Below, piece after piece: positions 7,998 through 34,594 of a stretch of 64,000 nt of DNA. The notes under the pieces were generated by a model. That model was not told the DNA's origin. It made no database searches and saw only the letters and a list, made by a program, of their open reading frames with translations. The translations under genes were made by a program, and so were the position numbers. How positions within the stretch are numbered: position 1 is the first letter of the stretch; the number at the start of each line of letters is the position of its first letter. The stretch comes from Capsulimonadaceae bacterium. Lineage in GTDB: Bacteria > Armatimonadota > Armatimonadia > Armatimonadales > Capsulimonadaceae. The stretch spans positions 1 to 64,000 of the forward strand of contig JARLGU010000062.1 in assembly GCA_031292625.1 (NCBI GenBank), in the 5' to 3' direction.

Positions 7998-8999
7998 ATG
8001 AGCGTATCTCTTGCGGATATTGCGGCTAAAGCGGAAGTGTCCATCGGGACCGTCTCGCACGTCCTGAACGGAAACAGGGCGGCACGGATCGCGCCGGGGA
8101 CGCAGGCGCGTATTCGACGGATTGCCGACGATATGGGCTATCGCCCAAATGTTTTCGCCAGGCACCTCCTCGGCAAGCCAAACATGACGCTTGCCATTTT
8201 ATTTCCCGGCTCTCAGAACCCCTTTTACCTTAGCGTCGCGCGACAAGTCGAGATTGCCGCCGCCGATGCCGGTTACCGTCTGTTTACGGTGCTTCAGCCG
8301 TGGCTCCATCCTCATGCCGCGCAGCCGGAAATGTGGCCGGTCGACGGGATCTTTATCTGGGCGCCGCATTTCCCGGATCTGCAATCGATGCTCGGATCAG
8401 TCATGAGCAAGACCCCGGTCGTACACATAGGCTATCAGGTGCGCGACGCGACGGAGCATGTTCGCTTTGATCTCGCGGGAGGCGCGCGTCTGGCCGTAAA
8501 TCATCTTATTGAGCGCGGCTATCGGCGGATCGCTTGTGCGATTCCTGAAGAGGATAAGAATCGATCGTTGCCGGATCTGCGGTGGCTGGCCTATCTTGAA
8601 ACGTGCCGCGAGATTGGATTGCGCCCAGAGAACGTCGAAGTCGAACTGGAGGGCAACCGGCAAACGGCGGGCTTTCGTCTGGGACAGCGCTTGGCGAAAA
8701 TGAACCCTGCGGAGCGGCCGGAGGCGGTGTTTGTCACGGGAGACATGGCGGCAATCGGCGTCTATCATGGAGCGCTGCAGGGCGGTCTGCGGATCCCGGA
8801 TGACCTTGCGATCGTGGGCTTTGACGGTATCGAGGAAGGACAGGTCCTCGATCGAGCGTTGACGACCGTGTTGTGTCCTGTCGAAACTTTCGGCGCCGCG
8901 GCAGCGGCCGTAATGGTCGCGCGTTTGACCGATGGGGCGGACAAACCGCCGCAGCAAATCATGATACCCACGAGCCTAATCGTGGGACAAACGACTTAG
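7998..8999 (+). CDS. LacI-family transcriptional regulator
   Basis: A 333-residue LacI repressor. The N-terminal helix-turn-helix ([20 protein letters not shown]) and hinge ([13 protein letters not shown]) are canonical, followed by a sugar-sensor domain with '[36 protein letters not shown]', the usual LacI effector-domain ending. The ATG at 7998 has an AAAGGG ribosome site; an upstream in-frame TTG would add a non-family extension. It is followed by two related pseudopilin genes at 9031 and 10011, but by no hydrolase. It likely autoregulates through the 7931-7946 palindrome. The effector is unknown. Confidence 0.92.
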
Positions 9000-32607: not shown

Positions 32608-33855
32608 TTATATCTCCCTCAGGGTCGCCAGCGCGTCCTTCTGCGCATTCGCGCTGGGTTCGTGGCCTGTGAACTCCGTCGATGCGCGGGCAATGAGATC
32701 CCAGCGCAGGTTGACCTGATAGTTGGCGGACTCGCCGAGCAGCGCTCTGCGCAGCAAACGCGCCGCTTCGTTTCCCATTGCCTCGATCGGCGGACGCATT
32801 GTGGACAGCCGAACGACGCGCGAGCGCGGGTTGTCGTCGAAGCCGATTACCGCGTAATCGCGGCCAGCGGCGAGCCCACGCTCCTCCGCGGCGTTCATAA
32901 AGCCGAACGCGCCCTGGTCCTGGATGCAAATGACGCCGTCCGGCACGTCCGTCGTTCGCAGCAGTTCGTTTGCACGGCAGTACGCGAGCTCCGTAGGTTC
33001 TTGATCTTGATCCCAGGGGACAGGGCATTCAGGCGCGACGACGACGTCGTAAGCGCCGGAGTGCGTCGCGGCCGCGCGAATGCCGTTGATGCGCTCGGTA
33101 GCCCAAGGAGCGGTCGTCGGCGCAAAGATCATCAAGCGTTGGCAGCCGGCGGCGATGAGATGGCTTGCGGCTTCGTATCCAGCGCCATAGTTGTCGTAGA
33201 AGACGTGCGGCACGGGGCGCTGAAGCGAGCCGTCGGACGAGACGACGACGATCGGGAAGCGATTGTGTGATGACGCGCTGGCGGTCAGCGCCTTATCCAG
33301 CTCGGCGGCGCGAACTCCGATGCCGATCACCGCGACGGCATTCACGCCGGCGTTCCGGGCGTCGGAGACCGTCTCGTATAGCGGCTGGAGCGGAGTTGCC
33401 GGGTTCTTGACGCGGTTAAAAAAACACGAGCGGTTGCTGTCTCTCGAAGCAGCGCTTTCAATGGAGTGAACGAGCAGGCGGACCCATTCGTTATTGAGCG
33501 CAATATGGTCGTGGCGGGATTCGTAAAGCGAGCCGACAATCCCGATGGTCATGCCGCTGAGCGGTAAGTGGTTCGAGTCGGCGGACGCGGCGTCACGCTG
33601 AGCTGCGGACGCTGCGGGCGGCGTTTCGGTGACGAACGTGCCCCGCCGGTCATCGGCGCGCAACACGTGGTCCGCGATCATCCCGGTGACGGCGCGCTCG
33701 ATGGTAAGAGGAGAGACCCCGTAAAGCTTGGCGAGCTCCCGGCGGCTGGGCAGCATGGCTCCCGGGCGCCACTCGCCGCGGCTGATCATGCCGCGGAGGC
33801 GCATTTCGATTTGTTTATAGACGGCCGGTTCGCCAGCCTTGTCGACGTCGCTCAT
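32608..33855 (-). CDS. GntR/LacI-hybrid (AraR-like) regulator
   Basis: A 415-residue regulator starting at the ATG 33855 (MSDVDKAGEPAVYKQIEMRL), with GAGGGGCGAGG upstream. Residues ~10-80 are a GntR winged helix (EWRPGAMLPSRRELAKLYGV … DRRGTFV). Residues ~110-400 are a LacI-like sensor ('NYGAGYEAASHLIAAGCQRLMIF', 'VICIQDQGAFGFMNAAEERGLAAGRDYAVIGFDDNP'). It precedes the subtype A pseudopilin at 31600 with a three-base gap, the tightest pairing in the window. The inverted repeat ACTTTCC / GGAAAGT flanking its promoter is the best autoregulatory site. Confidence 0.9.
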   Translation of the reverse strand: MSDVDKAGEPAVYKQIEMRLRGMISRGEWRPGAMLPSRRELAKLYGVSPLTIERAVTGMIADHVLRADDRRGTFVTETPPAASAAQRDAASADSNHLPLSGMTIGIVGSLYESRHDHIALNNEWVRLLVHSIESAASRDSNRSCFFNRVKNPATPLQPLYETVSDARNAGVNAVAVIGIGVRAAELDKALTASASSHNRFPIVVVSSDGSLQRPVPHVFYDNYGAGYEAASHLIAAGCQRLMIFAPTTAPWATERINGIRAAATHSGAYDVVVAPECPVPWDQDQEPTELAYCRANELLRTTDVPDGVICIQDQGAFGFMNAAEERGLAAGRDYAVIGFDDNPRSRVVRLSTMRPPIEAMGNEAARLLRRALLGESANYQVNLRWDLIARASTEFTGHEPSANAQKDALATLREI

Positions 33856-33927: not shown

Positions 33928-33959
33928 CAAGGGCGCGCAAAAAAGGTGCGCTTTGAAAT

Positions 33960-33993
33960 GTCGTCGGCGAGCGAAAGCGGCGACTGTTTTTTT
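33960..33993 (+). terminator. Intrinsic terminator or attenuator upstream of the polyhistidine gene
   Basis: GTCGTCG (33960-33966) pairs with CGGCGAC (33978-33984, one G-U), followed by TG and seven Ts. There is no plus-strand gene before it. It could end a short leader RNA, or act as an attenuator for the gene at 34145. A second stem, CAAACATC / GATGTTTG (34045-34070), follows. Confidence 0.55.
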
Positions 33994-34144
33994 ACCGAAA
34001 TAATCGCCGCGGCGGGTGGAACTCTCAGGCCGAGTATTTCGCTACAAACATCAGGACGGGCCGATGTTTGGCGACGATCCCTCTCGCAGGATCCAGATAT
34101 CAATGTCCTGATAGCACGTTAAAATTGCTCAACGGAGGAAGACA

Positions 34145-34324
34145 ATGTCGACTTTAATGCGTACTCTCGTCGCGGCTGCCTTGATTGCCGCATTCGCAGG
34201 CGCAAGCCTCGTAGGCGTTACGTCTACCGCATCCGCGTCACCGCGCGCTCCTCAGGCGGGGTGGGCTCATCGCCACCACCACCACCATCACCATCACGGC
34301 TCGATCATTTTCCATCGCCACTAA
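34145..34324 (+). CDS. Small secreted polyhistidine protein
   Basis: A 59-residue protein too short for usual ORF cut-offs. A GGAGGAAG ribosome site precedes the ATG. Residues ~5-33 are a classic signal peptide (MRTLVAAALIAAFAGASLVG … ASA-S). The mature part is only about 25 residues and contains eight consecutive histidines plus three more, ending FHRH. Such a peptide would bind nickel, zinc, copper or cobalt, or buffer protons, outside the membrane. No metal transporter is adjacent. A strong terminator follows at 34349, and a structured leader precedes it, supporting a real, regulated gene. The function is inferred from composition only. Confidence 0.75.
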   Translation: MSTLMRTLVAAALIAAFAGASLVGVTSTASASPRAPQAGWAHRHHHHHHHHGSIIFHRH

Positions 34325-34348
34325 TCCGCGCGATGCAGAATTGTCCCT

Positions 34349-34387
34349 GCAGCCGCCTTTCGCCTTGCGCGGAGGGCGGCTGCTTTA
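34349..34387 (+). terminator. Rho-independent terminator
   Basis: A perfect 9-bp stem, GCAGCCGCC (34349-34357) with GGCGGCTGC (34375-34383), followed by TTTAT. It ends the small polyhistidine gene. Confidence 0.75.
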
Positions 34388-34509: not shown

Positions 34510-34594
34510 TGGTGGGCGAGAAGGGACTCGAACCCTTAATCCTTGCGGAACCAGCTCCTAAGGCTGGCGTGTATACCAATTCCACCACTCGCCC
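34510..34594 (-). tRNA. tRNA-Leu (anticodon UAG)
   Basis: On the minus strand, an 85-base class II tRNA: acceptor GGGCGAG (from 34594) pairs with CTCGCCC. The anticodon arm is CCAGC-CTTAGGA-GCTGG, giving anticodon UAG. A long variable arm (TTCCGCAAGGA) and the T-loop GGTTCGAGTCC follow. Discriminator A and the 3' CCA are encoded (34513-34510). It lies between the polyhistidine gene and the ABC operon. Confidence 0.95.

What the first reader, a model, noticed from the sequence alone, without database searches (positions are those of the whole stretch)
33960..34383. Tiny secreted polyhistidine protein with structured leader
A 59-residue ORF, missed by length cut-offs, has a good ribosome site, a signal peptide, His8 and a strong terminator. 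Upstream on the same strand are a hairpin with seven Ts (33960-33993) and a second 8-bp stem (34045-34070), resembling an attenuated leader. Inference: a metal-binding extracellular or periplasmic peptide, possibly metal-responsive.
Basis: partly seen in the sequence, partly recalled or inferred. Interest (0 to 1): 0.6.

Follow-up and report, generated by a model that had tools for sequence, protein, structure and literature searches.

The report
Tiny secreted histidine-rich protein gene
A real but very small gene encodes an exported peptide that is more than a third histidine and probably soaks up metal ions or protons outside the cytoplasm; it belongs to a small uncatalogued group in one bacterial family, and the proposed RNA switch in front of it is not supported.

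Summary
The ORF at 34145-34324 (+) is real: 59 codons, GGAGG ribosome site, Sec-type signal peptide, mature peptide of about 28 residues with 11 His (including His8). It encodes the only His6-or-longer codon run in its 5.77 Mb genome. A likely homologue lies in another genus of the same family (G003:C139; E 5e-6, 51% identity). Two own-genome genes and a second G003 gene form a firmly related subfamily of the same build (signal peptide, linker, Trp, His/Arg block, Gly plus short hydrophobic-basic tail, then a hairpin). Its link to the target is architectural, not proven by sequence. No Pfam or NCBIfam family covers any of them; members occur in only 2-3 of 291 genomes of the phylum. The leader claim does not hold up: the hairpin with T7 and the 8-bp stem exist, but neither is conserved, no antiterminator lies upstream, and the 95 nt ending at the T run fold no better than shuffles. 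A his-operon-type attenuator is rejected: no histidine genes lie downstream. Best reading: an exported, disordered His-rich peptide acting as a metal/proton sponge, like SilE or Asr in principle but a member of neither. Metal specificity and regulation are unknown.

The parts
34145..34324 (+). 59-aa ORF: signal peptide (about residues 1-31), linker SPRAPQAG, W40, His/Arg block 42-51 (HRHHHHHHHH), tail GSIIFHRH
   Evidence: homologue in G003; only His6-or-longer site in the genome
34134..34138 (+). GGAGG ribosome-binding site
   Evidence: sequence
34349..34383 (+). 15-bp hairpin just after the stop, followed by TTTATG: probable intrinsic terminator with a weak T tract; comparable hairpins follow the stop in the other members
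33960..33993 (+). terminator-like hairpin followed by T7; role unknown, not conserved, no antiterminator found
34045..34070 (.). perfect 8-bp inverted repeat CAAACATC-N10-GATGTTTG: possible operator or chance; no other exact copy in the genome
33899..33927 (-). promoter of the divergent GntR-LacI type regulator (TTGACT-17-TATTAT, 10 of 12)
32608..33855 (-). divergent regulator, GntR DNA-binding domain plus LacI-type sugar-binding domain; start taken as the ATG at 33855 by its ribosome site
   Evidence: start by inspection
34510..34594 (-). tRNA-Leu gene converging on the ORF; shows that the ORF is monocistronic

Best explanation
34145-34324 is a genuine monocistronic small gene. Its product is exported by Sec; the signal peptide is removed after ASA, leaving a disordered cationic peptide of about 28 residues with 11 His. 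The His/Arg block binds transition metal ions such as Ni, Zn, Cu or Co with low specificity and takes up protons at mildly acid pH, so the peptide works as a metal and/or proton buffer in the periplasm or at the cell surface. The Trp before the block and the Gly-led hydrophobic-basic tail may hold it to a membrane or wall partner. Shown: the gene anatomy, the uniqueness of the His run, and a likely homologue in another genus. Inferred: export, metal or proton binding, location and benefit.
For: ORF, ribosome site, signal-peptide-like start and post-stop hairpin. Only His6-or-longer site in the genome. Homologue in G003, E 5.4e-6 with 51% identity, sharing APQ, W, HRHH(R/H)H5 and G-x-[IV]-IFH; of 23 residues identical in the alignment, 10 use a different synonymous codon, which points to selection on protein. 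Further genes of the same build: G000:C41, G000:C48 and G003:C360, the last found at E 7.3e-8 by a model that did not contain it. Within this subfamily identical residues are mostly encoded by different codons (22 of 38, 19 of 26 and 12 of 21). A hairpin follows the stop in all members. Neighbours of the other members are stress genes: G000:C48 is divergent from glutamate decarboxylase (TIGR01788) and G000:C41 lies beside an RsbW-like protein, an SPFH protein and a YflT-domain protein. Known principle: SilE is a disordered periplasmic metal 'sponge' (PMC5008109, title and abstract), and Asr is a disordered periplasmic acid-shock chaperone (as summarised in PMC10746267).
Against: No expression, secretion or metal-binding data. 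No metal transporter or sensor next to the target. Of seven family genomes held, only two or three have a member. Similarity to G003:C139 in the flanks of the His block is modest (48 of 3000 shuffles reach it). AlphaFold on the single sequence shows only the signal helix. His-rich composition alone does not prove metal binding in vivo.
Confidence: 0.6

Rival explanations
1. Periplasmic acid-stress protein: the His/Arg-rich disordered peptide becomes highly charged at low pH and protects envelope proteins, as Asr does; metal binding is incidental.
For: G000:C48 lies divergently about 200 bp from a glutamate decarboxylase gene, and G000:C41 lies in a stress-gene cluster. Weak, sub-threshold matches to the Asr model (E 0.13 for the target, 0.064 for G000:C41).
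Against: The Asr model scores 13-14 bits against a cut-off of 50. The target has no acid-stress neighbour. It lacks the Lys/Ala/Gln repeats of Asr (own knowledge of Asr), and its relation to the two stress-linked genes is architectural only.
Confidence: 0.2
2. Leader peptide of a histidine-attenuation system: ribosomes stall on the His8 codons when His-tRNA is short, which changes the folding of the following terminator and lets transcription reach a histidine gene.
For: Run of eight His codons followed directly by a hairpin, as in the his leader (his-leader papers found).
Against: The 59-codon ORF carries a signal peptide. The next gene downstream is a convergent tRNA-Leu, followed by minus-strand ABC transporter genes. 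No histidine gene lies beside any other member examined. The homologues break the His run with Arg, Gln or Trp.
Confidence: 0.02
3. Metal-responsive leader: the upstream hairpin with T7 and the second stem form an attenuator (riboswitch-like) that controls the ORF.
For: The hairpin and T7 are present and are the best such site in the window; a perfect 8-bp inverted repeat follows.
Against: No upstream antiterminator. Fold z-scores between -0.4 and -1.9. No DNA conservation of the leader in 40 relatives: the partial hits inspected lie in unrelated coding sequence. The C41 and C48 genes have a likely promoter within about 40-60 nt of the start codon. No Rfam match.
Confidence: 0.06
4. Secreted His-rich cationic antimicrobial peptide (histatin-like).
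For: Mature peptide short, cationic and His-rich, behind a signal peptide.
Against: No immunity, processing or dedicated transport gene was recognised alongside. Activity not tested.
Confidence: 0.06
5. Chance ORF with a simple CAC repeat.
For: Short ORF, low-complexity core.
Against: Mixed CAC/CAT codons, ribosome site, post-stop hairpin, and a likely homologue with synonymous changes.
Confidence: 0.04

Closest known systems
SilE / PcoE periplasmic metal-binding proteins (PMC5008109)
   Same: exported, disordered, metal-ligand-rich 'sponge' principle
   Different: SilE is longer, uses Met as well as His (own knowledge), and sits in a silver-efflux operon; no match to any Pfam or NCBIfam model here, no efflux operon
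Asr acid shock protein (NCBIfam NF033636)
   Same: small, exported, basic, His-containing, disordered
   Different: 13 bits against a cut-off of 50; no Lys/Ala/Gln repeats
Hpn and Hpn-like of Helicobacter (PMC4671568)
   Same: small proteins with high His content that bind nickel
   Different: no signal peptide and cytoplasmic (own knowledge); no sequence relation seen
his operon leader peptide (HisL)
   Same: run of 7-8 His codons followed by a hairpin
   Different: the target has a signal peptide and 59 codons, and no histidine operon follows
Own-genome subfamily G000:C41:229995-230195, G000:C48:62045-62248 and G003:C360:10627-10833
   Same: signal peptide, linker, Trp, His/Arg block, Gly, hydrophobic-basic tail, post-stop hairpin
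   Different: linker ends STNW or TTNW, tail ends I-x-I-[RH]-L, fewer consecutive His; homology to the target not statistically shown

Membership tests
Small exported His-rich protein (kind, not a curated family) | ORF with ribosome site, signal-peptide-like N-terminus and His-rich mature part | tested here: met
   the signal peptide was judged by eye because no predictor was available; the AlphaFold model shows a helix at residues 3-30
Small exported His-rich protein (kind, not a curated family) | reading frame conserved in relatives | tested here: met
   G003:C139, E 5.4e-6, synonymous changes; one relative genome only, so thin
Small exported His-rich protein (kind, not a curated family) | binds metal ions | not testable with these tools
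   composition only
Target and C41/C48/C360 as one family | similarity beyond the His block | tested here: inconclusive
   target against a model of the others: 19 of 1000 flank shuffles score as high; pairwise against C41, C48 and C360 no signal
Asr (NF033636) | score above the curated cut-off | tested here: not met
   13.0 against 50 bits
his operon leader (attenuator) | histidine biosynthesis or HisRS gene downstream on the same strand | tested here: not met
Riboswitch or attenuated leader | match to an Rfam family, or conserved/covarying leader | tested here: not met
   covariation could not be counted because no homologous leader was found
Riboswitch or attenuated leader | antiterminator able to compete with the terminator before it forms | tested here: not met
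   no upstream complement of 6 nt or more to the 5' arm
SilE / PcoE | sequence family and location in a silver or copper efflux operon | tested here: not met
   no match among Pfam/NCBIfam hits; neighbours are a sugar-type regulator, a tRNA and an ABC transporter

The most novel reading that the evidence does not exclude
A lineage-specific, uncatalogued family of exported His/Arg-rich micro-peptides, several per genome, forms part of an envelope acid/metal stress response; the conserved Trp and the Gly-led tail dock the peptide to a specific partner rather than leaving it a free sponge.
Probability: 0.2. Interest if true: 0.5.

Novelty: new member of a known kind. Interest (0 to 1): 0.3.

Why it matters
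Such genes fall below annotation length cut-offs and their low-complexity cores defeat ordinary searches, so envelope metal or proton buffering by tiny peptides may be overlooked. Here a small lineage-specific set, with one copy divergent from glutamate decarboxylase, gives a directly testable link to acid or metal stress. If it proves to be a simple sponge, it is a modest addition to a known principle.

Tried and rejected
Rfam at gathering and relaxed thresholds: only the tRNA, apart from a sub-threshold match on the same tRNA. DNA search of the whole 501-bp region in 40 relatives: the hits to the leader (33991-34026) that were inspected lie in unrelated coding sequence, for example a type III pantothenate-kinase-like frame in G031, judged by eye. 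Phylum-wide model search: hits outside the family are weak, and those inspected are not alike apart from a simple His-tailed secreted ORF in G022. Treating all five proteins as one proven family was rejected after shuffle controls; an earlier, laxer shuffle had suggested it. A His-tag vector contaminant was considered ('HHHHHHHHGS' looks like one) and rejected: native context and a homologue with a different block. His-operon attenuation was rejected on gene order. A shared promoter with the paralogues was rejected: their 27-nt element occurs only at those two genes.

Full report
Observation. The 59-codon ORF stands at 34145-34324 (+) as described, with GGAGG at 34134-34138, a basic start (MSTLMR), a long hydrophobic stretch, a cleavage-like TASA|S, and the mature sequence SPRAPQAGWAHRHHHHHHHHGSIIFHRH, which holds 11 His in 28 residues. 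A pattern for six His codons finds this one site in the 5.77 Mb genome and nothing in the reversed-pattern control. After the stop lies a 15-bp hairpin (34349-34383); its T tract is short. The gene stands alone: upstream is a divergent GntR-LacI type regulator with its own good promoter, downstream a convergent tRNA-Leu and a minus-strand ABC transporter.

Is it a gene? Yes, most likely. In a genome of another genus of the same family (G003) a 51-residue ORF, MKSTLSIVLLLAVAFTLLSTPSFAGGFANAPQHWHRHHRHHHHHGLVIFHH, matches at E 5.4e-6; it appears to start at a TTG, which was judged by eye. It shares APQ, the Trp, the HRHH block and the G-x-[IV]-IFH tail, and 10 of 23 aligned identical residues use a different codon. 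With the His block set aside, the flank similarity is reached by 48 of 3000 shuffles, so the homology is likely rather than certain.

A wider set. Two genes in the own genome (G000:C41:229995-230195, G000:C48:62045-62248) and one in G003 (C360:10627-10833) encode MKISRIL..STNWRHH..HGG-I-I-RL type proteins. The C360 gene was found at E 7.3e-8 by a model that did not include it. Among themselves they are firmly related: none of 1000 flank shuffles reaches the real score, and most identical residues use different codons. They share the build of the target (signal peptide, linker, Trp, His/Arg block, Gly, hydrophobic-basic tail, post-stop hairpin), but the target's sequence link to them is weak (19 of 1000; no pairwise signal). 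I therefore describe one architecture and two sequence groups. G004 has a third form that ends in His9-Arg-Arg. No Pfam or NCBIfam family applies. In 291 genomes of the phylum the convincing members are confined to G000, G003 and perhaps G004.

Leader. The hairpin with T7 is real and is the best hairpin beside a run of seven or more T in the window, and the 8-bp inverted repeat is real (3.9% of shuffles have one). As an attenuator they fail. The 95 nt ending at the T run fold no better than shuffles. No sequence upstream can act as an antiterminator. The alternative partner of the 3' arm lies downstream of the T run, so it is made too late to prevent termination. Nothing in relatives or Rfam matches. 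The C41 and C48 genes carry a shared 27-nt promoter-like element, unique to them in the genome, that ends within about 40-60 nt of their start codons, leaving no room for such a leader. The T7 hairpin may end a short antisense or divergent transcript; the inverted repeat may be an operator. Neither can be decided here. Promoter candidates for the ORF are all weak (8 of 12 at best).

How it probably works. An exported, disordered, His/Arg-rich peptide will bind transition metals and titrate around pH 6 (general chemistry of His, not tested here). SilE shows the sponge principle in the periplasm (PMC5008109), and Asr shows the acid-chaperone principle (PMC10746267). Neighbours of the other members point to stress: glutamate decarboxylase divergent from C48, and an RsbW-like protein, an SPFH protein and a YflT-domain protein beside C41; G003:C139 has MsrB on one side and, a few genes away on the other, a CDF metal exporter. 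For the target itself there is no such neighbour, so the metal-or-acid question is open. The AlphaFold model shows only the signal helix with a low-confidence remainder.

Rival considered and rejected: a histidine attenuator. His8 followed by a hairpin resembles the his leader, but the ORF has a signal peptide and no histidine gene follows it or lies beside any other member examined.

Verdict. A real, small, exported His-rich protein gene: ordinary in principle, new as a sequence family. The structured, metal-responsive leader is not supported.

Noticed in passing
G000:C48 (L052:6447-7844 and 8046-8252): A His-rich small secreted protein gene divergent, across about 200 bp, from a glutamate decarboxylase gene; a near-perfect palindrome GGATATATCGTT-CTT-AACGATATATCC lies between its promoter and start.
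   Followed up: partly
G000:C41:230232-230258 and G000:C48:61984-62010: Shared promoter-like element TTTCGATTGCYTGCTNNNNGGATATAT, found only at these two paralogous genes in the genome even with three mismatches.
   Followed up: partly
L073:971-2239 (G003:C401): NlpC/P60 cell-wall hydrolase with an exported region of about eight repeated His clusters (HHHH, HHRHHH and so on) before the catalytic domain.
   Followed up: partly
L074:106-1848, L075, L076: NicO-type nickel/cobalt transporters (L074 tested, the other two alike by eye) with very long His-Asp loops and a conserved HHHHHH in related genomes.
   Followed up: partly
G000:C43 (L053:7576-7839): Another small exported His-containing ORF (87 aa, LRHHHSHWRHFHARHMYRH then a longer C-terminal part) with a GGGGTATATTTT promoter-like element, beside what looks like an AraC-type regulator.
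   Followed up: no
window 33930-33955: Second hairpin (about GGGCGCGC, A-rich loop, GTGCGCTTT) between the divergent regulator promoter and the T7 hairpin; possibly a regulator operator.
   Followed up: no
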